Part shown: positions 21,464-32,372 of the stretch, piece after piece
Layout: the number at the start of each line of letters is the position of its first letter
Numbering within the stretch: position 1 is the first letter of the stretch
Source of the DNA: Novilysobacter antarcticus
Lineage (GTDB): Bacteria; Pseudomonadota; Gammaproteobacteria; Xanthomonadales; Xanthomonadaceae
Assembly (NCBI RefSeq): GCF_019802285.1
Contig: NZ_JAIEUJ010000001.1
Coordinates: 496,001 to 560,000, forward strand
DNA: 64,000 nucleotides
Reading direction: 5' to 3'
Notes under the pieces: model-generated
The model's input: the letters and a program-made list of their open reading frames with translations, nothing else
Told to the model about the DNA's origin: nothing
Database searches by the model: none
Translations under genes and position numbers: made by a program

Positions 21464-23275
21464 ATGCTGATGTACTCGAACGTGTGGAGGGCAGGTTCGC
21501 TTGCAGTCCTGCTGGTCTTTGGAATGTCCGGCACCGCCTTGGCGCGCGACACCGGCACGACGACCGCGATCATCAATGCGTTGGTCTTTGACGGCACTGG
21601 GAAAGCGGCCTATCCAGCCACCGTACTGATCCGCGATCAGCGCATCGTGGACGTGGGCACCAGGCTGAGGGTGCCCAAGGGCGCGATAAGTGTGGACGCC
21701 GATGGCAAGACGCTCATGCCGGGGCTGTTCGACCTGCATACGCACTGGACACCCAATTCAAGTCCGTCCTCCAGCGCGGTGCTTTCGGGGGTCTATCTGG
21801 CGGCAGGCGTCACCACGGTCAATGATTTCCACCAGGCGCCGGAGTCCTATGCGCCGCGCCGCGAATGGCTGGGCAGCATTGCAGCGCCGCATGTCAACTT
21901 TGCTGCGCGCATGAGCACCCCGCTGGGTCACGGCGCCGACTGGGCCGATACGGCGACCACGCGCTGGGTGAATTCGCCCGACGCGGCGCGCGATGCCGTC
22001 CGCGAGCTGGCGCCCTACAAGCCGGACATGATCAAGGTGTTCACCGATGGCTGGCGCTATGGCCACATGCCCGACAACACCAGCATGGATCCGTGGACGT
22101 TGACGGCGCTGGTTGAGGAGGCGCATGCCAACGGACTCAAGGTGGCCGCCCACACCGTCACCGCGGAACGCGCAGGATGGGCCGGCGACGCCAAGGTTGA
22201 CCTGATTGCCCACAGCATCCAGGACCGCGTTGTGGATGCACGCACCGTCGCCCAGCTGAAAGCCGGTGGTACGTTTTACGCGCCCACCCTGGCGGTCTAC
22301 GAGCCGGTCAAGATGGGCAGTTCGCCGCCGGCCGATCCCGAGTCTCCCGCGTTTCTGAGCCGCCAACGCAACTTCCGCAACGCGATGGAAAATGTTCGCG
22401 TGCTGCACAAGGCCGGCGTACCGATCGCGCTGGGCACCGACGCCGGCATGCCGGGCACGCCACACGGTGCGGCCACTTTGCGCGAGCTGGAATTGCTTGT
22501 GCAGGCGGGTTTGAGTCCGGCCGAGGCACTGCAGGCAGGCACTGCAACCAGCGCGGCAGCCGTCGGCTTGCAGGATGACCGGGGTCGCATTGCCAAGGGC
22601 CAGCGCGCCGACCTGCTGCTGGTGGATGGCAAACCCTGGGAAAATATCCAGGACATCAAGAAGCTCAGCCGCGTCTGGGTGGACGGCCAACTGGTGCTGG
22701 GTCCGGGCGTGTCGCTGCCGGCCGGCAACTCGCGCAAGTACCCGCAGCCCGAGGTCGTGGGGCCGCTGGTGGATGATTTCGAGCGCGCGGACGAACGTAC
22801 CGCCTTGGACACACTGCGCACCACCGACAATGACGGTGGCAACGATCGCACATGGCAATTGACCCGGGTCGTGGTGCGTGAAGAAGGCGGGCGCGCGCTG
22901 CGGACCATGGCGCGGATGTCCAGCAAGGATCGCGCGTATGCCTCGGTGGTGCTGCCATTGAGCCGTGGCTCGGTAAAGCCTGTAGACCTGCGTGGCTATC
23001 GCGGAGTGCGTTTCGACATCCGCGGAGAGGACGGACGCCACGCGTTGATGGTCAAAGGACTGGAAGGCGGGCGATGGAAAACCGCCATCAACGTGCAGCC
23101 ACAATGGCAGCAGGTCAGCGTCGATTTCAGCCAGCTGGAGTACGCACCCTATCGGGCGGTCGAAGGCGAGACCCTGCCATGGCGCGGCGACGATGCCACC
23201 GATCTGCAGTTCATCGTTGATGGTGAAGGCGCTGCAATGCCATGGTTTGAACTCGACAATGTGGAGTTCTACTGA
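21464..23275 (+). CDS. Exported amidohydrolase with C-terminal CIA30-like domain
   Basis: 603 residues. After a signal peptide ending GTALARD comes a urease-superfamily amidohydrolase domain: LMPGLFDLHTHW supplies the first metal histidines, KVAAHTV and LIAHSIQ later histidines, and ALGTDAGMPGTP the catalytic aspartate. From about residue 430 a second domain begins (VVGPLVDDFERADERTAL) that ends in MPWFELDNVEFY, a pattern of CIA30 / galactose-binding-like beta-sandwiches. The combination suggests a periplasmic hydrolase with a carbohydrate- or ligand-binding tail. RBS GGGGAG precedes the ATG; a second ATG lies two codons in. It is 46 bases upstream of the next amidohydrolase gene. Confidence 0.82.
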   Translation: MLMYSNVWRAGSLAVLLVFGMSGTALARDTGTTTAIINALVFDGTGKAAYPATVLIRDQRIVDVGTRLRVPKGAISVDADGKTLMPGLFDLHTHWTPNSSPSSSAVLSGVYLAAGVTTVNDFHQAPESYAPRREWLGSIAAPHVNFAARMSTPLGHGADWADTATTRWVNSPDAARDAVRELAPYKPDMIKVFTDGWRYGHMPDNTSMDPWTLTALVEEAHANGLKVAAHTVTAERAGWAGDAKVDLIAHSIQDRVVDARTVAQLKAGGTFYAPTLAVYEPVKMGSSPPADPESPAFLSRQRNFRNAMENVRVLHKAGVPIALGTDAGMPGTPHGAATLRELELLVQAGLSPAEALQAGTATSAAAVGLQDDRGRIAKGQRADLLLVDGKPWENIQDIKKLSRVWVDGQLVLGPGVSLPAGNSRKYPQPEVVGPLVDDFERADERTALDTLRTTDNDGGNDRTWQLTRVVVREEGGRALRTMARMSSKDRAYASVVLPLSRGSVKPVDLRGYRGVRFDIRGEDGRHALMVKGLEGGRWKTAINVQPQWQQVSVDFSQLEYAPYRAVEGETLPWRGDDATDLQFIVDGEGAAMPWFELDNVEFY

Positions 23276-23321
23276 GCCTTGCCCTCGACTGTTTTGTAGT
23301 CGGCACCAAAAGGAGCCACAT

Positions 23322-24815
23322 GTGAAGGTGATGAGCAAGACCGCGGTGGCGATCATTGCCGCACTGGCACTGCAGGGTGCGGTTGTCGCTGGTCAGGGCG
23401 ACGTCGCTGACCCTGATGTGACCCGTGCCGAATCCACTGCGCCCGTGGGCCAGCCCTTGCTGCAGCGCCTGGATGCCTACGCGCCGCAGATCATCCGCAT
23501 GGCCGACCAGATGTGGCGGGAGCCCGAGCTGGGCTATCTGGAAAACGCGTCGTCGGCACTGATGCAGGACGAATTGCGTGCTCACGGTTTCCGGATCGAG
23601 GCCGGAGTGGCCGGTATGCCGACAGCCTTTGTGGCTACCGCCGGCAAGCGCGGCAAGGGACCGGTGATTGGACTGCTGGCGGAAATGGACGCGCTACCGG
23701 GAATGTCGCAGGCCGCGGTTCCGCAGCGGCAGTCCATCGCCGGTCAGGATCCGGGCCACGCCTGCGGGCATAACCTGTTTGGCGCCGGCACGGTGGGCGC
23801 GGCGGTGGCGTTGAAGGAATGGCTCGACAGCAGCGGCACCGAGGGCGAGATCCGCGTGTTCGGCACGCCGGCCGAGGAGGGCGGCTCGGGCAAGGTCTAC
23901 ATGGTTCGCGCCGGACTGTTCAACGACGTCGACGTGGCGCTGCACTGGCACCCCAACTCGCAGAATTCCGCTTCGCAGAGCATCAGTCTGGCCAACATCA
24001 GCGGCAAGTTCCGCTTCAGCGGCCAGGCCTCGCACGCAGCGATGGCGCCGGAGCGTGGACGCTCTGCGCTGGACGGAGTGGAAGCGCTTAACTACATGGC
24101 CAACATGCTTCGCGAGCACGTCCCGCAGGAAACCCGCATCCACTACATCATCAGCAACGGCGGCGGATCGGCGCCCAACGTGGTGCCGGCCTCGGCGGAA
24201 GCCTACTACTACGTTCGCCATCCCGATCCGGTGGTCGTGCGGAGCGTGTTCAATCGATTGACCGACGCCGCCGAGGGCGCGGCGCTGGGCACCGGCACCA
24301 GCTTCGAATTCGAGCAGACCGGCGGAGTGTTCAGCCTTTTGCCCAACGACACCCTGGGCAAGGTCATGCATGCCTCCCTGCAGCAGGTGGGCGGAGTGGA
24401 ATACGATCCCGCGGACGTCGCGTTCGCAAAAGAGCTGCAGAAGCAGCTCGAGCAGCAGGTCGATATCAGCGAGGCGTCCCAGGTAGCACCGTATTCGGTC
24501 GACGGCGACGGGTTTGGTTCGACCGACGTCGGTGATGTCAGCTGGGCGGTCCCCACGGTCGGCATGGGCGCTGCCACTTGGGTGCCCGGCACGCCCGCGC
24601 ACAGCTGGCAGGCGGTGGCTGCGTCGGGCATGGGCATCGGCCACAAGGGCGCAGTCGTGGCGGCAAAGGCGCTGTCACTGACGGCAATGCGGCTGTTCTC
24701 CGAGCCGGCGCTGGTGCAGCAGGCGCGCGCGGAGTTCGAACGCCGACGCGGCAAGGATTTCCGCTACGAGCCGTTGCTGCAGCGAGAGAAGCCTCCGCTG
24801 GATTACCGGAAGTAA
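23322..24815 (+). CDS. Exported M20 amidohydrolase (AbgB-like)
   Basis: 498 residues from a GTG start that is placed six bases after AGGAG; a signal peptide ending in VAGQGDV follows. The M20D fold shows the metal motif GHACGHNLFGAG and the LLAEMDALPG strand, FGTPAEEGGSGK with the general-base glutamate and HWHPNSQNS histidine, and the dimerisation stretch ASHAAMAPERGRSALDGV. These enzymes cleave amides or peptides of aminoacyl or N-acyl type. Length is about 60 residues greater than cytosolic AbgB. Downstream of another exported amidohydrolase, which suggests that the pair acts in the periplasm on a common nutrient. Confidence 0.88.
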   Translation: MKVMSKTAVAIIAALALQGAVVAGQGDVADPDVTRAESTAPVGQPLLQRLDAYAPQIIRMADQMWREPELGYLENASSALMQDELRAHGFRIEAGVAGMPTAFVATAGKRGKGPVIGLLAEMDALPGMSQAAVPQRQSIAGQDPGHACGHNLFGAGTVGAAVALKEWLDSSGTEGEIRVFGTPAEEGGSGKVYMVRAGLFNDVDVALHWHPNSQNSASQSISLANISGKFRFSGQASHAAMAPERGRSALDGVEALNYMANMLREHVPQETRIHYIISNGGGSAPNVVPASAEAYYYVRHPDPVVVRSVFNRLTDAAEGAALGTGTSFEFEQTGGVFSLLPNDTLGKVMHASLQQVGGVEYDPADVAFAKELQKQLEQQVDISEASQVAPYSVDGDGFGSTDVGDVSWAVPTVGMGAATWVPGTPAHSWQAVAASGMGIGHKGAVVAAKALSLTAMRLFSEPALVQQARAEFERRRGKDFRYEPLLQREKPPLDYRK

Positions 24816-24850: not shown

Positions 24851-25759
24851 TTACCCGGCGCGTGCTTCCGGCGGCAATTTTGCCCCGTCCTGCGCAGCCT
24901 TCAGCCGCATCAGGTGGCCGTGGAGCATTTCCGTCGACAGGCCGTGCAGTGACAGCCGGTATCCGGCGCGCAGGGTGGACATCGGCACCAGCGGGTGCTT
25001 GTTGTTGACCAGCCCGAGGTGGTCGCCTGCGTCAAGGATCGTGGCGACGTAGATGCCGATGGTTTCATCGAGCTGCAGCGAATTGGTCGCCCGCCAGAAG
25101 TCGTCATCGCTCAGGAACAGCTGATAGACCGGGGTGAAAAGCTCGATCGCGCTCTGCAGGTCGAGGAAGTTCCGGCGCCGGTTGGGCATGTCCTCGATCC
25201 GCAGATGGTCCGGCTGGTGCATCATCGAGAAATCCGGCGTTTCGACCTTCCCGAGCTGCTTGCCGCTGGCGCGCAGCGCGCTGTTGAGCCGGATCACGAA
25301 ATTGTAGAGGTTGAGGTCGTGGACCAGATACATGTCCGGGGCGACGTCGGTGATTTTCTCCGGCCGCAACGGGTTGGTCTGGATATCGACCGGTGCATTG
25401 GCGGCAATGAAGGACAACGCCTGCGATCCGATGCAGAAGTGTCGCAGGATCAGCCAGTTGGCTTCCGGGCGGATGAAGTTCTGCATGCCCCAGGCAAGCA
25501 GCCGGTGGAGCGTGGGGGAAAACGCCAGTTTGCGTGGAGTGAACACCTTGAGTATCTGCAGCAGGATGATCGCCAGCCGCGCAAACGGGCGGATGAAGGG
25601 CAGCACGTACTGGCGTGACCTCGAGCTGGAGTCGACCAGCCAGGCGTGTTTCACCGCCGGATCAATCGGCGTGGACTGGTCCAGATACAGGGCCAGCCAT
25701 GGGCTGGGGTCGCGTGGGTCGTGCTCCCGCTCGAGGAAGTCGGGGTTGCCGCGGCTCAT
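24851..25759 (-). CDS. Unrecognised protein of the KASIII-diiron operon
   Basis: 302 residues. No confident family. Two moderately hydrophobic stretches are visible near residues 55-75 (RPFARLAIILLQILKVFTP) and around 85-120 (MQNFIRPEANWLILRHFCIGSQALSF). The rest is soluble in character, with MYLVHDLNLYNFVIRLN and PDFSMMHQPDHL containing several histidines and aspartates. The ATG at 25759 overlaps the stop of the ketosynthase-diiron gene by 4 bp, and this is the last gene of the three-gene operon. A role as an accessory enzyme or lipid-binding protein of that pathway is inference from position only. Confidence 0.75.
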   Translation of the reverse strand: MSRGNPDFLEREHDPRDPSPWLALYLDQSTPIDPAVKHAWLVDSSSRSRQYVLPFIRPFARLAIILLQILKVFTPRKLAFSPTLHRLLAWGMQNFIRPEANWLILRHFCIGSQALSFIAANAPVDIQTNPLRPEKITDVAPDMYLVHDLNLYNFVIRLNSALRASGKQLGKVETPDFSMMHQPDHLRIEDMPNRRRNFLDLQSAIELFTPVYQLFLSDDDFWRATNSLQLDETIGIYVATILDAGDHLGLVNNKHPLVPMSTLRAGYRLSLHGLSTEMLHGHLMRLKAAQDGAKLPPEARAG

Positions 25760-27669
25760 GACGAGGTTTCCCGCAATGGAGTGACGTGCTGGAACTGCAT
25801 CAGATACATCTCCGCGGTTCGTTTGGCTGTGTCCAGGATGTCCGTCGCCAGATGGCCGTCGTGGTCGTGCTCAAGTGCGATTTCCACCGCGCGCAGCCAG
25901 CGCAGCAAGTGGTGCTCGTCATTCTCGCCGTGATACTCGAGAAAGCGGAACGCATCGCGCGGAACATCCTTGAGCGTTGCCTTCATCAGCGGAAGCAGGG
26001 CGGGAATGATCCGCTGCCCCGTGCCTTCAATGATGTAGATCGCACCCAGCAGGCCGATCGGGTTTTGGGTTGCGGCAAGTGCGTGAAGGTAGGCGTTCAG
26101 TGCCTCTCCGCCGGGGTTCCGCTTGAGGTGGTCAATGTCCGCCACCGGACCACCGGCCTTGCCGTAGTCGCTGAACAGGATTTCGAAATCGTCCTGTTCC
26201 TCGCCTGCGTGCGTCTCGATCAGCGCCGCCAGCGGCTCGAAAGGAGTGGTGATACTCGCAGCACCCTCGCGCATCCAGAGGCTGCCCTCGCGAACCTGCG
26301 GGATCCAGTGGCTCATCCAGCCCAGATAGTCGGCGCGCGTCCAATCGCCGCCGCGCAAGCGCCGGACCACGGGCGTGCGCCAAACGCGCGAGCGGTAGTC
26401 ATGCCACACGCCTGCCAGCTTGCCGAGCAGGTCGCGCAAGGCTTCGGGCGCGTCCGCCGGGTCGTGGGGCGCGGGAACAGGGGTGTCCAGAGAGGGCGCG
26501 GAGGTAGTGGACGTTGCCCGCGGTATCGGAGCAGCCAACGGGCTGTCAGCTGCTTCGACCTCGATCAATACGAAGGACGCAGTAAAGCGGCCGGACTCCG
26601 GAACAAAACACAGGATCTGCTGGCCGGCGGCGATTTCGCGGGTGCGCAGGAACTCGTCGAGCATGATGAAGATCGACGCCGCCCCGGTGTTGCCGCGCGT
26701 CGCCAGGTTGCTGTACCAGCGCTCGCGCGGGATGGCCAGACCGGCTTTCTGCATCAGGTCGTCCACCACCGGTGCGAACTTTTCCGATGAGTAGTGGCAC
26801 AGGAAATGGTCGACGCGCTCCGGGTTGATATCGCCAGCCTGCACAAGGCGGACGTACTCGTGGATGCAGACGTCGAAGAGGTTCGGCAGCAGCCGGATGT
26901 CCTGCCGCAACAGCAGGGCGCCATCGGCTTCCGCGTCCTGCCAGCTGTCGTAATCCAGGTGGGAACGCGTCCTGTTTGCCGAGAGCCCCAGCTGCATGCA
27001 GACCGGGTAGTCGCCCGAAAAGGAGCGTTGGTGGATGAAGCGCAATTTCAGTCTCAGCTTGGCGTCAGCCTTGGGCCGGGACGACAGCAGTACCGCGCCG
27101 GCGCCGTCGGACAGCATCCAGCGCAGGAAGTGGGCATCGAAGTCGGCGTCGTAGCCGCAGCCGGCAAATCGAGAGCGCTTGAACAACCGCGACGGCATTT
27201 CCGCAGCGGCCACGAGTGCATGCTCGTGTGAGCCCAGCTCCACCGCACTCGCCGCCGCCTCCCAGGCCGCGATGCCCGATGCGCAGATACCGAGCGAGCT
27301 CAGGGTCTGCATCGGCGGGCCGTTGAGTTCACCCAGCACCATGTTGGCAAAGCCGGGCAGCAGGGCATCGCCGCCGCACCCGCCGGTGGCAAGCATCCCT
27401 ACGTTGTCCAACGATTGCCCGGCGCTATGCAGGCACTCGCTGATTGCGCTCGCCGCCATCGCCTCGGGCGATGTGTGAGTGGTGCCGTCCTGGTTGATGC
27501 CGTAGTGGCGTGTGACGATCCCGTTCTGATCCAGGATGCGCTGCTTGATGCGCGATGACAGCTGGTTGAGCGGGGCCACAAACGAATCCATGCCCGCGTT
27601 GTCGATCGCGGGACCGGGCAGGTGGCGGGCGTGGCCGGTGATGTAGACGTTGTTGAAGCGGGTGGTCAT
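25756..27669 (-). CDS. Ketosynthase III fused to haem-oxygenase-like diiron domain
   Basis: 637 residues in two enzymes joined by a Pro/Ala/Thr linker at about 372-408. Residues 1-370 are a KAS III: catalytic cysteine C129 (SLGICASG), histidine H292 (DHFLCHYSSEKF) and asparagine N327 (LATRGNTGAAS), so condensation activity is expected. Residues about 410-630 fit the iron-containing redox enzyme family with a haem-oxygenase/TenA-like helical fold; candidate metal ligands are E461, E485/H487/E490/E491, E548, H580, D584 and H586/H587. The family includes the alkene-forming UndA and other N- or C-oxidising enzymes. A fused carbon-chain building and oxidising protein is implied. It overlaps both neighbours by 4 bp. 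Substrates are unknown. Confidence 0.8.
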   Translation of the reverse strand: MTTRFNNVYITGHARHLPGPAIDNAGMDSFVAPLNQLSSRIKQRILDQNGIVTRHYGINQDGTTHTSPEAMAASAISECLHSAGQSLDNVGMLATGGCGGDALLPGFANMVLGELNGPPMQTLSSLGICASGIAAWEAAASAVELGSHEHALVAAAEMPSRLFKRSRFAGCGYDADFDAHFLRWMLSDGAGAVLLSSRPKADAKLRLKLRFIHQRSFSGDYPVCMQLGLSANRTRSHLDYDSWQDAEADGALLLRQDIRLLPNLFDVCIHEYVRLVQAGDINPERVDHFLCHYSSEKFAPVVDDLMQKAGLAIPRERWYSNLATRGNTGAASIFIMLDEFLRTREIAAGQQILCFVPESGRFTASFVLIEVEAADSPLAAPIPRATSTTSAPSLDTPVPAPHDPADAPEALRDLLGKLAGVWHDYRSRVWRTPVVRRLRGGDWTRADYLGWMSHWIPQVREGSLWMREGAASITTPFEPLAALIETHAGEEQDDFEILFSDYGKAGGPVADIDHLKRNPGGEALNAYLHALAATQNPIGLLGAIYIIEGTGQRIIPALLPLMKATLKDVPRDAFRFLEYHGENDEHHLLRWLRAVEIALEHDHDGHLATDILDTAKRTAEMYLMQFQHVTPLRETSS

Positions 27670-28469
27670 TCTCGGAAATCCTTGCCGGGCGACGGGGCAA
27701 CCAGGTGGTCGGCGGCGCCCGCTGCGATGGTGCTACCCGCCAGACGGTCAAACACGTCCAGCAGGAAGCCGTAGTTGCCGTGATAAACGGCGTGGTGGAG
27801 GTGATGTCGGCGGCTGGCTGCAAGGAGCCCCCGCGCGGGCGCGAGCCGACTGAACTCGTAGTTCGCGTGACCCAGATTGTTGAGGACGATGCTCATCACC
27901 GGCAGGCAGAACAGCGCGGTCGGGCTGAACTGATGCACCAGCATCGGCAGGATGGGAACGCTGCCCAGCAGCAGGGCTTCCACCGGGTGGAAGGCATAGG
28001 TGGCAAACGGTGTTGGCGTCAGCGAGCGGTGATGGTCGGCGTGGAACCGCCGCAGCGGCCGCGTGTGCAGCAGCCGGTGGCACACATAGAAGTGCAACTC
28101 GTTCCAAAGGAACAGGGCCACCAGCTCGACAACGATGCGCTGCGCCGAGGCCTCATACGCGAGTCCGGACCAACCGCTTCGCAGTAGCCACCAGGGCACC
28201 AGGACACCGACGCCGAACAGCAGGATCGAACCGCAGGATTCAACGATCTCGCGGCCAAGCTGTCCTGGCCGCAGGGGCCGCTGATCGAGCACACGGCCGA
28301 ATCCCAGTCTGGGCAGTAGCGAGCGCGTCAGCCACCACGTCAGCGTGCCGGTCACGAAGTACAGCGCGGCGAAATAGAGTGTCGCCCAGAGCACTATCTG
28401 CCATGCAGGCAGAGCGACGAAGTCAAGTGCGAGGCGCGTAATGCCGGTGAAGTCCAGTCCTGTATCCAT
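27666..28469 (-). CDS. Fatty acid hydroxylase / sterol desaturase family membrane protein
   Basis: 267 residues, with hydrophobic segments around 15-45, 78-98 and 110-125. The diiron histidine boxes of the superfamily are all present: HRLLH (131-135), HADHH (143-147), NNLGHANYE with H201, and HHLHH (222-226), plus H161. It should be an O2-dependent lipid hydroxylase or desaturase in the inner membrane. First gene of the operon; its stop overlaps the ketosynthase start by 4 bp. The substrate is probably the product or the fatty-acid precursor of that operon, which is inference. Confidence 0.88.
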   Translation of the reverse strand: MDTGLDFTGITRLALDFVALPAWQIVLWATLYFAALYFVTGTLTWWLTRSLLPRLGFGRVLDQRPLRPGQLGREIVESCGSILLFGVGVLVPWWLLRSGWSGLAYEASAQRIVVELVALFLWNELHFYVCHRLLHTRPLRRFHADHHRSLTPTPFATYAFHPVEALLLGSVPILPMLVHQFSPTALFCLPVMSIVLNNLGHANYEFSRLAPARGLLAASRRHHLHHAVYHGNYGFLLDVFDRLAGSTIAAGAADHLVAPSPGKDFRE

Positions 28470-28564: not shown

Positions 28565-29083
28565 TTACCGGGGTTCGAGTTCGGCGTCGGCCGCGATGGC
28601 GTCGAGTTGCGCCGCGAAATCAAGCACGTTCGCGCGCTGGTTCTCGAGGTCGGCCGCCACAGTGAAGTCGTTGGATTCGATGGACTGTTTCAACGCCGCC
28701 ACCTTCGACAGATCGATGCCGCCCGCATCCTTCTGGATCTGGCCGAGCGCGTCGGCGGCTTCGTGCAGGCGCGTGTTGGCGATGCCGAAATTACGCTGGT
28801 CCAGATCGACGGCCGTGCGGTAGAGGTCCACTCGTGCGCGCATCAGGTAGTTGCGGTTCTGCACTTTCGCCAGATCGGCTTTGGACTCTCCCAGGATCTG
28901 GTTGCCCTGCTCGATCTGCTGCTCGTACTGCAGCTTCTGAGTCGCCAACTCCTTGCGGCCCTGGCTCAGACCGACGTAATAGAGCACGCCCGCAACCACG
29001 ATGAAAACGCCGGCGGCGATGAGCATGGCCGTGGTCGACACGAGGTGACCCTGTCGGGGCGATGTTGTAGCGGTCTCGTTCAT
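28565..29083 (-). CDS. Single-pass membrane protein with coiled coil
   Basis: 172 residues. One membrane helix near the N-terminus (MLIAAGVFIVVAGVLYYVG) is followed by a long charged helical region, QKLQYEQQIEQGNQILGES onwards, with heptad-like spacing. The C-terminal part contains LSKVAALKQSIESNDF. No family recognised. Likely anchored with the coiled coil on one side of the membrane. The neighbours do not suggest a role. Confidence 0.65.
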   Translation of the reverse strand: MNETATTSPRQGHLVSTTAMLIAAGVFIVVAGVLYYVGLSQGRKELATQKLQYEQQIEQGNQILGESKADLAKVQNRNYLMRARVDLYRTAVDLDQRNFGIANTRLHEAADALGQIQKDAGGIDLSKVAALKQSIESNDFTVAADLENQRANVLDFAAQLDAIAADAELEPR

Positions 29084-29840: not shown

Positions 29841-32372
29841 TCAGGGGACGGTCTTGCCGTCCGGCAGGGCGTAAGCAATCACCGAGTCACCGGTTTTGGT
29901 CCCCGTATAGCGGTGTCCACCGGCAACCACGACCAGATACTGCCGACCGTCGCGCCCAAGGTAGGTCGCCGGGGTCGACTGGCCGCCTGCGGGGAGGCGC
30001 TCCTTCCAGATTTCCCGGCCGTCCGCGATGTCATAGCCACGGACGTAGTAATCAACCGTGCCAGACAGGAATGCCACACCACCGGCAGTCACAATCGGCC
30101 CACCTATACCCGGGACGCCGGTTTTCAGCGGTAGCGGCACGGGCGCCATGTCGCGCACGGTCCCGTTGACGCGCTGATAGATCGTTTCGCCGGTGGTCAG
30201 GTCGACGCCGGCGATGTAGCCCCATGGTGGCTGCTGGCAGGGCAAGCCGACGCGGGACATGAACGGTCGGAGGACGGAGGCATAGGGCGCGCCGAAATTC
30301 TCATTGCCCATCGGCTGTCCCGGCGCGGACGCAACTTTCTCCAGCGTGTCGGGACGCGGGATCAGCTGGGCGGTGAAACCCAGATAGACCGGCATGGCGA
30401 ACATCACCTGCCGCGCCGGGTCCACCGCCACCGCACCCCAGTTGAAGACGCCGAAGCTGCCCGGATGGGTAAGCGAGCCCTGCACGCTGGGCGGAGTGAA
30501 CCGGCCTTCATACACCAGCCTGGCCAGATCGATCCGGCACAGCATCTGGTCCACCGGCGTCATCCCCCACATCTGCGCTCCGGTGACGTCCTCGGGCGCA
30601 AAGGAGATCGCGGACACCGGCTGTGTCGGTGAGACCGGTTCGCCGGCAATGGCGTTCTGCGACACCGGCATTTCCCGCACCGGGTGGACCGGCTTGCCGG
30701 TCGCACGGTCCAGGACGAAAACGTCGCCCTGCTTGGTGGGCTGGACCAAAGCGGCGATGCGTCGTCCGTCGACGGTCAGATCCACCAGGCTGGGCTGCGC
30801 GGGCACGTCGTAGTCCCAGACATCGTGGTGGACGGTCTGGAAGACCCAACGCACCTCTCCGGTCGCCACGTCCAGAGCGGTCACCGAGTTGGAGAACTTC
30901 TCGACCGCGGCCGAGCGCCCGATGCCGTACTGGTCGGGTGAGCTGGCGCCGAAGGGCAGGTAGACCAAGCCCAGCTCCGGGTCGTAGCTGGCCACGCTCC
31001 AGCTGTTGGGCGCGTTCGCGGTGTAGGTCTCGCCCGCGGCGATGGGTGTGGTTTGTTCCGGATTCGCGGCATCGAAATTCCACACCAGCGCACCGGTCTT
31101 CAGGTCGAAAGCGCGCACCACGCCCGATGGCTGGGTGGTGGAAAGATTGTCATCGATGCCGCCGCCGACCACGATCACGTCGCCGGCAACCAGTGCCGGC
31201 GATGTGCTGTAAAACGCGCCGGGCGATACGTTGGGCATCCCCTGCCACAGGTTGACCGTGCCGTCGGCACCGCCAAAGCCGGGGCAGATGACGCCGGTTT
31301 CCGCGCTCAGTGCGATCAGTCGCGCATCGCGGGTTGCCACGAAGACTCGGCGGTGGCAGTCCCGGCGCATCGGCGTATCTTCCTCGGTCGCCGTGGCCAG
31401 GACCACCGGGTTGGGATCTCCCGCAACCGCCGTGCCGGCGACGATGTTGTGGGACACGCCCGCAGCGAGCGTGGTCGCCATGGCGCGGCTTGCGGCCGTG
31501 AGTTGTCGGGCTTGGTTGCTGTCTGCCTCGGGCAGATCCGTCGGCGCGGCAGCCTCGCCGTCATCGTGATAGCTGACACCACGGCAGGTCGTATAGCGGG
31601 CGAGGGCGAGGGGCAGTTCGACCAGCTGCGGATCGAAGCGCCAGCGCTGCTCGCCGGTGACCGGATCCAGTGCGATGACCTCGCTGCGCGGCGTGCACAC
31701 GAACATCGTGTCGTTGACGATCAGCGGTGTGGCTTCTACCGCGCTTCCCGGCAGATCGGGGTGGATATCGCCGGCATGGAACTCCCACACCTTCTCCAGG
31801 TTTTTTACGTTCTCCGTGGTGATCTGGTCCAGAGGTGAGTAGCGCTGTCCTGCAGCCGTTCGCCCGTAGGCGATCCAATCGCCGGGCGCCACCGGATCCT
31901 CGCCAGGGGCACGATCCGCCATGCGGTCGGACGGCAAGGCTCCATGGATTTCGTGGGGGTTGGAGAAAAGCGAAATCCCTGCGACGACGGCACCAATGGC
32001 CAGGACGCCGATCAGACTGCCGCGATCGAGGTCGACACCACTCGCTCGTCCGCTGCGCAGCGGCAAGGAACGGCTGACCGCCGGCAAGAGCAGCAACAGA
32101 CCCAGAAGGACGATGACGCCCTCACGTGGCGCCATTGCCCACCAGTCAAATCCCACCTCCCAGACCGCCCAGACCAGGCTGGCGGCGATAGCGACTGCGT
32201 ACGCAAGCAGGCCGGCACGCCTGCGCAGCAGCAAAAGCACGCCCGATGCAATCAGCGGCAGCGAGAGGACCGCAAAGCCCCAAGAGCCTCCGAGAACGAT
32301 CAGCTGCACACCGCCGACCGCCAGGGCGAGACCGAGTACAAGGATGACGATGGCAAGCAGGGTACGGATCAT
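29841..32372 (-). CDS. gcd: Membrane-bound PQQ-dependent glucose-type dehydrogenase
   Basis: 843 residues. Residues 1-150 contain about five membrane helices (beginning LLAIVILVLGLALAVGG), as in membrane-anchored glucose/quinate/shikimate dehydrogenases. The rest is an eight-bladed beta-propeller that binds PQQ and faces the periplasm: GDWIAYGRTAAGQRYSPLDQ marks the first blade, VIALDPVTGEQRWRFDP and VWNFDAANPEQTTP are tryptophan-docking blades, and GVAFLSGTVDYYVRGYDIADG is near the end. It oxidises an aldose or cyclic polyol and passes electrons to ubiquinone. Glucose is the best guess of substrate. No pqq genes lie in the window. Confidence 0.92.
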   Translation of the reverse strand: MIRTLLAIVILVLGLALAVGGVQLIVLGGSWGFAVLSLPLIASGVLLLLRRRAGLLAYAVAIAASLVWAVWEVGFDWWAMAPREGVIVLLGLLLLLPAVSRSLPLRSGRASGVDLDRGSLIGVLAIGAVVAGISLFSNPHEIHGALPSDRMADRAPGEDPVAPGDWIAYGRTAAGQRYSPLDQITTENVKNLEKVWEFHAGDIHPDLPGSAVEATPLIVNDTMFVCTPRSEVIALDPVTGEQRWRFDPQLVELPLALARYTTCRGVSYHDDGEAAAPTDLPEADSNQARQLTAASRAMATTLAAGVSHNIVAGTAVAGDPNPVVLATATEEDTPMRRDCHRRVFVATRDARLIALSAETGVICPGFGGADGTVNLWQGMPNVSPGAFYSTSPALVAGDVIVVGGGIDDNLSTTQPSGVVRAFDLKTGALVWNFDAANPEQTTPIAAGETYTANAPNSWSVASYDPELGLVYLPFGASSPDQYGIGRSAAVEKFSNSVTALDVATGEVRWVFQTVHHDVWDYDVPAQPSLVDLTVDGRRIAALVQPTKQGDVFVLDRATGKPVHPVREMPVSQNAIAGEPVSPTQPVSAISFAPEDVTGAQMWGMTPVDQMLCRIDLARLVYEGRFTPPSVQGSLTHPGSFGVFNWGAVAVDPARQVMFAMPVYLGFTAQLIPRPDTLEKVASAPGQPMGNENFGAPYASVLRPFMSRVGLPCQQPPWGYIAGVDLTTGETIYQRVNGTVRDMAPVPLPLKTGVPGIGGPIVTAGGVAFLSGTVDYYVRGYDIADGREIWKERLPAGGQSTPATYLGRDGRQYLVVVAGGHRYTGTKTGDSVIAYALPDGKTVP

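What the first reader, a model, noticed from the sequence alone, without database searches (positions are those of the whole stretch)
24851..28469. Three-gene operon with a ketosynthase III-diiron oxidase fusion
Directly seen: three genes overlap by 4 bp, in the order fatty-acid hydroxylase-like, KASIII fused to a haem-oxygenase-like diiron domain, and an unrecognised protein. KASIII keeps C129, H292 and N327, and the second domain keeps a set of Glu/His/Asp residues. Established: KASIII makes C-C bonds on acyl groups; the diiron family includes UndA, which turns fatty acids to terminal alkenes. Inference: the fused enzyme extends or condenses a fatty acyl chain and then oxidises or decarboxylates it, with membrane hydroxylation by the partner, giving an unusual lipid or volatile. 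No carrier protein or transporter is included, so fatty acid synthesis may supply substrates.
Basis: partly seen in the sequence, partly recalled or inferred. Interest (0 to 1): 0.8.

Follow-up and report, generated by a model that had tools for sequence, protein, structure and literature searches.

The report
Conserved ketosynthase–iron oxidase lipid operon
A bacterial operon joins an enzyme that links fatty-acid chains to an iron-type oxygen enzyme and a protein of unknown function; the three travel together in many bacteria and probably make an unknown oxidised lipid.

Summary
On the minus strand lie, overlapping by 4 bp, a fatty-acid hydroxylase (28469-27666), a 637-aa KASIII plus haem-oxygenase-like (HDO) fusion (27669-25756) and a DUF6999 protein (25759-24851). 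The core is KAS + HDO + DUF6999: DUF6999 marks exactly the genomes with KAS-HDO, 18 of 199 relatives and 9 of 398 in a phylum sample. Hydroxylase and desaturase are optional. KAS and HDO are fused in cyanobacteria and most beta/gammaproteobacterial loci read, separate neighbours in some gammas and in another class, probably Alphaproteobacteria.

The KAS is closest to StlD/DarB ketosynthases, with C129/H292/N327 kept. Seven putative HDO metal residues are invariant in 101 of 101 rows, but the first helix is non-canonical: H-x3-E-x2-D instead of E-x2-H. DUF6999 has no convincing fold match in the PDB and an invariant His/Asp/Glu set.

Most likely a lipid pathway: the KAS condenses two fatty-acid-synthase chains, the HDO oxidises the product, DUF6999 completes it. 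Condensation plus diiron chemistry is plausible; UndA-like alkene formation has no specific support. The product is unknown; ten literature searches listed no paper on it.

The parts
27666..28469 (-). Fatty-acid hydroxylase (PF04116) membrane protein, 267 aa; accessory member of the operon
   Evidence: Pfam E 1.3e-23; histidines H131, H135, H143, H146, H147, H201, H222, H225, H226 invariant in 60 of 60 rows; 5 TM-like stretches
25756..27669 (-). Fusion protein, 637 aa: StlD/DarB-like KASIII (about residues 1-375), linker (about 375-408), HDO domain (about 409-627)
   Evidence: Pfam and NCBIfam; AF2 mean pLDDT 90.0 with pLDDT under 50 at 387-396; StlD 5gk0 at Foldseek E 2e-29
25756..26472 (-). 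Part of the fusion gene for residues 400-637, the HDO domain, with predicted metal residues H487, E491, D494, E548, H580, D584, H587
   Evidence: PF14518 32.1 bits, cut-off 28.9; invariant in 101 of 101 rows; compared with controls
24851..25759 (-). DUF6999 (PF22523) protein, 302 aa; constant partner with an invariant H107, H147, D148, D200, D231, H272, E277 set
   Evidence: Pfam E 5e-125; same genomes as KAS-HDO; AF2 mean pLDDT 88.6; best PDB fold match only E 0.61

Best explanation
The operon encodes a conserved module that makes or modifies a lipid. Inferred pathway: the StlD/DarB-like KAS domain takes two acyl thioesters from ordinary fatty-acid synthesis and joins them, perhaps with ring closure as recalled for StlD/DarB. 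The HDO domain, held on the same chain or in a neighbouring subunit, then activates O2 at a dimetal site and oxidises the condensed product (aromatising, hydroxylating or opening it), possibly in place of the DarA-type partner recalled from dialkylresorcinol pathways. DUF6999 carries out a further, nearly always required step, perhaps itself as a metal enzyme. The membrane hydroxylase, and the desaturase in other genomes, tailor the acyl chains. Shown: gene content, linkage, predicted domain folds and residue conservation. Inferred: every chemical step, the metals and the product.
For: The closest solved structure of the KAS by sequence and fold is StlD, and one operon KAS of five tested passes the NCBIfam StlD/DarB cut-off (L136, 461.9 against 450). 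The Cys/His/Asn triad is kept. HDO metal residues are invariant in 101 of 101. DUF6999 and KAS-HDO mark identical genome sets. All 7 loci read from the class of G416 have KAS, HDO and DUF6999 in that order, KAS and HDO as separate genes. On the KAS tree the fused state needs 3 changes, of which starred branches force 2, which fits a functional hand-over between KAS and HDO. Lipid enzymes cluster with the core: FAH beside it on the same strand in 60 of 101 loci and a desaturase in 57 of 101; Aas-type acyltransferase genes near it in L045, L083, L105, L106; PAP2 domains beside it in L100 and L134.
Against: Four of the five operon KASs tested, the window's included (304.5 against 450), are below the StlD/DarB cut-off, while the three KAS-only rows tested pass, so ring-forming chemistry may not carry over. 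There is no substrate or product evidence. Luteimonas and cyanobacterial loci have the core without FAH or desaturase within 4 kb; neighbours elsewhere include genes unrelated to lipids, such as a chaperonin, histidine genes and queuosine genes, so the link to lipids rests on part of the set. DUF6999 is missing in 2 Variovorax loci that keep KAS-HDO (L088, L102). The Aas-type link is absent from 92 of 96 loci and from 6 further ones. The proteins beside two KAS-only genes that could be DarA matched no family, so the comparison with DarA rests on recall.
Confidence: 0.45

Rival explanations
1. One reading: the KAS extends an acyl chain and the HDO, like UndA, decarboxylates it to a terminal alkene or volatile.
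For: Both domains can act on acyl groups and the HDO keeps a plausible dimetal ligand set.
Against: The KAS is nearest to StlD, ahead of the FabH entries. No entry named UndA is among the 60 shown of 63 matches in the PDB profile search. The HDO has a non-canonical first helix. The constant partner DUF6999 is left unexplained, and so are the acyltransferase genes of the few loci that have them.
Confidence: 0.1
2. The KAS does not condense but acts as an acyl carrier or acyltransferase: it takes an acyl group from ACP onto C129 and presents it to the HDO, which oxidises the chain in place; the product is an unusual fatty acid that goes into phospholipid.
For: Genes of the acyl-ACP--phospholipid acyltransferase kind lie near the core in L045 (equivalog model passed, 1580.7 against 1349), L106, L105 and, about 3 kb away, L083. 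FAH and desaturase genes that act on acyl chains are frequent.
Against: The full Cys-His-Asn triad of condensing KASs is kept, and acyl-transfer-only KASs often change it (recalled). Only 4 of 96 loci, and none of 6 more, have the Aas-type link.
Confidence: 0.2
3. A stress or redox-protection system rather than a biosynthetic one: the HDO consumes oxygen species, as proposed for DtpC of Acinetobacter baumannii.
For: An HDO-like protein has been tied to peroxide control and desiccation survival (PMC13232832, abstract and passages).
Against: DtpC is co-transcribed with the KatE catalase as a two-gene operon. A condensing-type enzyme fused to the HDO, with membrane lipid enzymes beside it in many loci, points to biosynthesis.
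Confidence: 0.08

Closest known systems
StlD/DarB ketosynthases (stilbene and dialkylresorcinol pathways)
   Same: KAS domain: closest solved fold and sequence (5gk0), catalytic residues aligned and kept
   Different: All operon KAS rows of the tree lie on the other side of one branch (support 100) from the 11 KAS-only rows; whether either side is a clade depends on the root. Below the family cut-off in the window. Fused or linked to an HDO and DUF6999; the BtrH_N/DUF4872 and ABC-transporter genes beside two KAS-only genes did not appear among the operon neighbours that I scanned
Haem-oxygenase-like dimetal oxidases (UndA, CADD, SznF, BesC, FlcD)
   Same: PF14518 domain; E on the second core helix and H-x3-D-x2-H on the third kept
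   Different: First core helix is H-x3-E-x2-D; 21 of 22 well-aligned control HDOs have E-x2-H. Fused to a ketosynthase; the 2026 HDO review holds neither 'ketosynthase' nor 'fused' in a word search
LplT/Aas-type acyl-ACP--phospholipid O-acyltransferases
   Same: Lies near the core in 4 of 96 loci
   Different: Not in the window's operon; a related MFS-acyltransferase gene lies elsewhere in this genome (455 bits, below cut-off)
DUF6999 (PF22523)
   Same: The window protein is a full-length member (E 5e-125)
   Different: A family of unknown function by its Pfam name; no paper with its name in the library

Membership tests
StlD/DarB ketosynthase family | NCBIfam PRK06816 score over cut-off (450) | tested here: not met
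   304.5 for the window; of four other operon KASs, L131, L045 and L063 fail and cyanobacterial L136 passes at 461.9; three KAS-only rows pass at 562-593
StlD/DarB ketosynthase family | Cys-His-Asn triad and KASIII fold closest to StlD | tested here: met
StlD/DarB ketosynthase family | Condensation to a 2,5-dialkylcyclohexane-1,3-dione (recalled) | not testable with these tools
   Needs enzymology
Haem-oxygenase-like dimetal oxidase (PF14518) | Pfam gathering score passed | tested here: met
   32.1 bits against 28.9
Haem-oxygenase-like dimetal oxidase (PF14518) | Metal motif E-H-X-H-D-H or E-H-X-H-E-H (about 85% of groups, PMC11363339 section 10) | tested here: not met
   Third-helix H-D-H and second-helix E are met; the first helix has D494 where 21 of 22 well-aligned controls have His, and adds H487. 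By the paper the motif is common, not universal
Haem-oxygenase-like dimetal oxidase (PF14518) | Bound dimetal cofactor and O2 activation | not testable with these tools
   Needs protein
UndA-type fatty-acid decarboxylase | Sequence kinship to UndA | tested here: inconclusive
   No entry named UndA among the 60 shown of 63 PDB matches at E <= 0.001; 3 were not shown
PF04116 fatty-acid hydroxylase | Family score and conserved histidines | tested here: met
   84.3 bits against 31; nine histidines invariant in 60 of 60
DUF6999 (PF22523) | Full-length profile match | tested here: met
   Profile positions 1-275 of 275, 416.4 bits

The most novel reading that the evidence does not exclude
KAS, HDO and DUF6999 form a new kind of oxygen-dependent lipid synthase in which two metal enzymes act on a ketosynthase-built ring: the HDO, with a rearranged H/E/D first-helix site, oxidises or opens a dialkyl-cyclohexanedione, and DUF6999, with its invariant three His and four acidic residues and no convincing solved fold relative, is a metalloenzyme fold not yet described. 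The product would be a membrane lipid shared by some proteobacteria and cyanobacteria and not yet named.
Probability: 0.2. Interest if true: 0.85.

Novelty: new variant of a known kind. Interest (0 to 1): 0.62.

Why it matters
A three-protein module found from cyanobacteria to proteobacteria, for which I found no characterised member, ties a Pfam domain of unknown function to two known enzyme chemistries and so makes its role testable. It offers an HDO with a rearranged predicted metal site and a natural ketosynthase-oxidase fusion, useful for studying how condensation and oxygen chemistry are coupled. Caulobacter vibrioides, a laboratory species, matches both PF22523 and PF14518, so a genetic test is within reach.

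Tried and rejected
Tried and rejected, or without result: (a) An Aas-type gene next to the core as a general rule: only 4 of 96 loci with matches of 35% or more over about 520-630 residues (weaker matches in L088, L095 and L102 were not counted), none in 6 further loci. (b) DUF6999 as a divergent HDO: profile-profile comparison of A2 with A3 gave a probability of 0.1%; ten of the 50 Foldseek rows shown for DUF6999 are chains of PolF, an HDO, but at E 1.4 or worse and TM about 0.12-0.16, which I treat as noise. (c) DtpC as the same system: it is co-transcribed with katE. (d) Promoter and terminator scans did not set the operon ends: 0 promoters (0.9 expected), 5 terminator-like sites (3.5 expected). 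(e) An operon-type desaturase elsewhere in this genome: it has two PF00487 genes, but neither matched the operon-type desaturases at E 1e-5. (f) Structural realignment by VIA: library absent. (g) Ten literature searches: none of the titles listed concerns this system; several lists were capped (20 of 39, 15 of 40, 25 of 5,148, 10 of 11), and the library holds open-licence papers only.

Limits of counts: the 103 stretches were mostly chosen by similarity to the fusion and so lean towards it; the genome counts do not, though their genome sets overlap in part. Genome searches with the fusion used E <= 1e-30. In one search I used 28 control HDOs of the 37 places (2 of the other 9 belong to this operon family, 7 gave no locus) and 15 of the 101 operon rows; 6 control rows (L169, L185, L186, L189, L191, L194) were wrong frames or unaligned and were left out by eye, and 17 of the remaining 22 come from one family (f49). 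Against my reading of a unique site: control L176 also has D at position 494, and L196 also has H at 487. The script printed L109 as split; one search shows its KAS and HDO in one open frame, so I count 85 fused, 15 split and 1 uncertain (L122, frame break). L047, L058, L119 and L122 were dropped before the tree, which is a quick build with midpoint root and flagged long branches.
Full report
What is there. The three minus-strand ORFs at 28469-27666, 27669-25756 and 25759-24851 are real and overlap by 4 bp. Pfam identifies a fatty-acid hydroxylase, a KASIII plus Haem_oxygenas_2 fusion, and DUF6999. The convergent plus-strand gene ending at 24815 is an M20-type peptidase. Scans found no promoter, and terminator-like sites at about the chance rate, so the operon ends are not set.

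How widely it occurs. With the fusion protein as query, 18 of 199 relatives have a match at E <= 1e-30. In a 398-genome phylum sample 20 match: 7 full-length fusions, 2 in two pieces (G416, G559), and 11 over the KAS part only. DUF6999 as query picks the same 18 of 199 and the same 9 of 398 that have both KAS and HDO. In the class of G416 6 of 289 genomes have DUF6999, in its family 2 of 99. The class is not named by the tool; I take it for Alphaproteobacteria, untested. The 7 loci read from these two searches (G416, five more of the class, and G614) all have KAS, HDO and DUF6999 in order, with KAS and HDO as separate genes. Among 14 control genomes DUF6999 rings only in Caulobacter vibrioides, which with Sulfolobus acidocaldarius also rings for PF14518; I could not read the Caulobacter locus.

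Gene order. Of 103 stretches (the window, L044-L139 and L157-L162), 101 hold KAS and HDO: 85 fused, 15 split, 1 uncertain (L122). DUF6999 follows in 98 of 101; the exceptions are L088 and L102 (Variovorax) and L128, whose contig ends soon after the HDO. The commonest order is FAH-desaturase-KAS/HDO-DUF6999 (50 of 101); FAH lies beside the core on the same strand in 60 of 101 and a desaturase in 57 of 101. In the window and the three congeners that have the operon, FAH directly precedes KAS without a desaturase. A membrane protein of about 190 aa precedes KAS in 7 split loci; two members matched no Pfam family and one no NCBIfam family. In those same 7 loci KAS and HDO lie in one frame with a single stop between them. 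Aas-type acyltransferase genes occur near the core in L045, L083 (about 3 kb away), L105 and L106; PAP2 domains in L100 and L134; an RND pump gene upstream in L127. Other neighbours look unrelated: histidine genes in L044, queuosine genes in L126, a chaperonin in L159.

Kinship. In a maximum-likelihood tree of 110 KAS rows (quick method, midpoint root, long branches flagged), the 11 KAS-only rows form one side of a branch with support 100. The midpoint drawing puts them beside the rows of G416's class, so the tree does not show that the operon KASs are a clade. The fused state needs 3 changes, of which starred branches force 2, so the fusion arose or was undone more than once if those branches hold. 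Two KAS-only loci have BtrH_N/DUF4872 and ABC-transporter genes beside the KAS; the protein where I would expect DarA matched no Pfam or NCBIfam family.

Active sites. C129 is Cys in 102 rows of 103 (one gap), and H292 and N327 are kept in 103 of 103; two of these rows are KAS-only loci. Seven HDO residues, H487, E491, D494, E548, H580, D584 and H587, are invariant in 101 of 101, as are Y579, Y622 and Q458. The FlcD paper (PMC11363339: section 10, passages) gives E-H-X-H-D-H or E-H-X-H-E-H for about 85% of HDO groups. Of 28 control PF14518 proteins 22 aligned well; 21 of them have His where the operon has D494 (L176 has Asp), and 20 have Tyr where it has H487 (L196 has His). The ligand set is thus rearranged on the first helix while keeping three His in all; which residues bind metal is inference. 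DUF6999 has 15 invariant residues in 96 rows, among them H107, H147, D148, D200, D231, H272 and E277, and one TM-like stretch at 52-70.

Structure. The fusion model has mean pLDDT 90.0 and shows two domains joined by a low-confidence linker. Foldseek against the PDB ranks StlD first; the 50 rows shown are all KAS-type hits, so the HDO fold was not tested separately. By sequence profile the HDO part matches 3dde, a structure of unknown function (E 5e-11). The DUF6999 model has mean pLDDT 88.6 and a best PDB match of E 0.61. I had no model coordinates, so metal geometry was not tested.

Interpretation. StlD/DarB enzymes are recalled to join a beta-ketoacyl and a 2-enoyl thioester into a dialkylcyclohexanedione, both being fatty-acid-synthase intermediates; that would explain why no carrier protein is encoded. 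I infer that the HDO oxidises this or a related condensed product and that DUF6999 completes it. The lipid enzymes around the core in most of the beta- and gammaproteobacterial loci read support a lipid product; their absence in Luteimonas and cyanobacterial loci suggests that they only tailor it. The UndA-like alkene reading is possible but has no specific support.

Literature. None of the papers listed by ten searches concerns the system, and no held paper names DUF6999. Of PMC13108848 (HDO review) I saw passages; of PMC13232832 the abstract, outline and passages; of PMC11363339 passages and section 10. Other papers were seen in listings only.

Noticed in passing
window 29841-32372, minus strand: Gene for a membrane-bound PQQ-dependent dehydrogenase of the glucose/quinate/shikimate family (TIGR03074, 1013 bits)
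   Followed up: no
window 21464-24815, plus strand: Two overlapping genes, an amidohydrolase and an M20 peptidase, convergent with the operon
   Followed up: no
window 28565-29083, minus strand: 172-aa ORF just upstream of the hydroxylase with no family over cut-off
   Followed up: no
L131:7429-8001 (also L044, L125, L127, L130, L132, L133): A conserved membrane-like protein of about 190 aa precedes KAS in 7 of the 15 split loci; the two members tried matched no Pfam family and the one tried no NCBIfam family
   Followed up: partly
L044, L125, L127, L130, L131, L132, L133: In these 7 split loci KAS and HDO lie in the same reading frame with a single stop codon (TAA, TGA or TAG) between them, so fusion by loss of one stop, or read-through, is conceivable
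   Followed up: no
L041 and L047 (G570): One genome holds both the fused operon (L046) and a separate KAS-only StlD/DarB-type gene with BtrH_N/DUF4872 and ABC-transporter genes beside it
   Followed up: partly
L100:10895-12283: A fatty-acid hydroxylase fused to a PAP2 phosphatase domain beside the core
   Followed up: no
L088 and L102: Two Variovorax loci keep desaturase and KAS-HDO but have no DUF6999 in the stretch
   Followed up: no
L168 (Pseudoalteromonas sp. THAF3 plasmid pTHAF3_a): The split form lies on an 801-kb plasmid, annotated as beta-ketoacyl-ACP synthase III, iron-containing redox enzyme family protein and hypothetical protein
   Followed up: no
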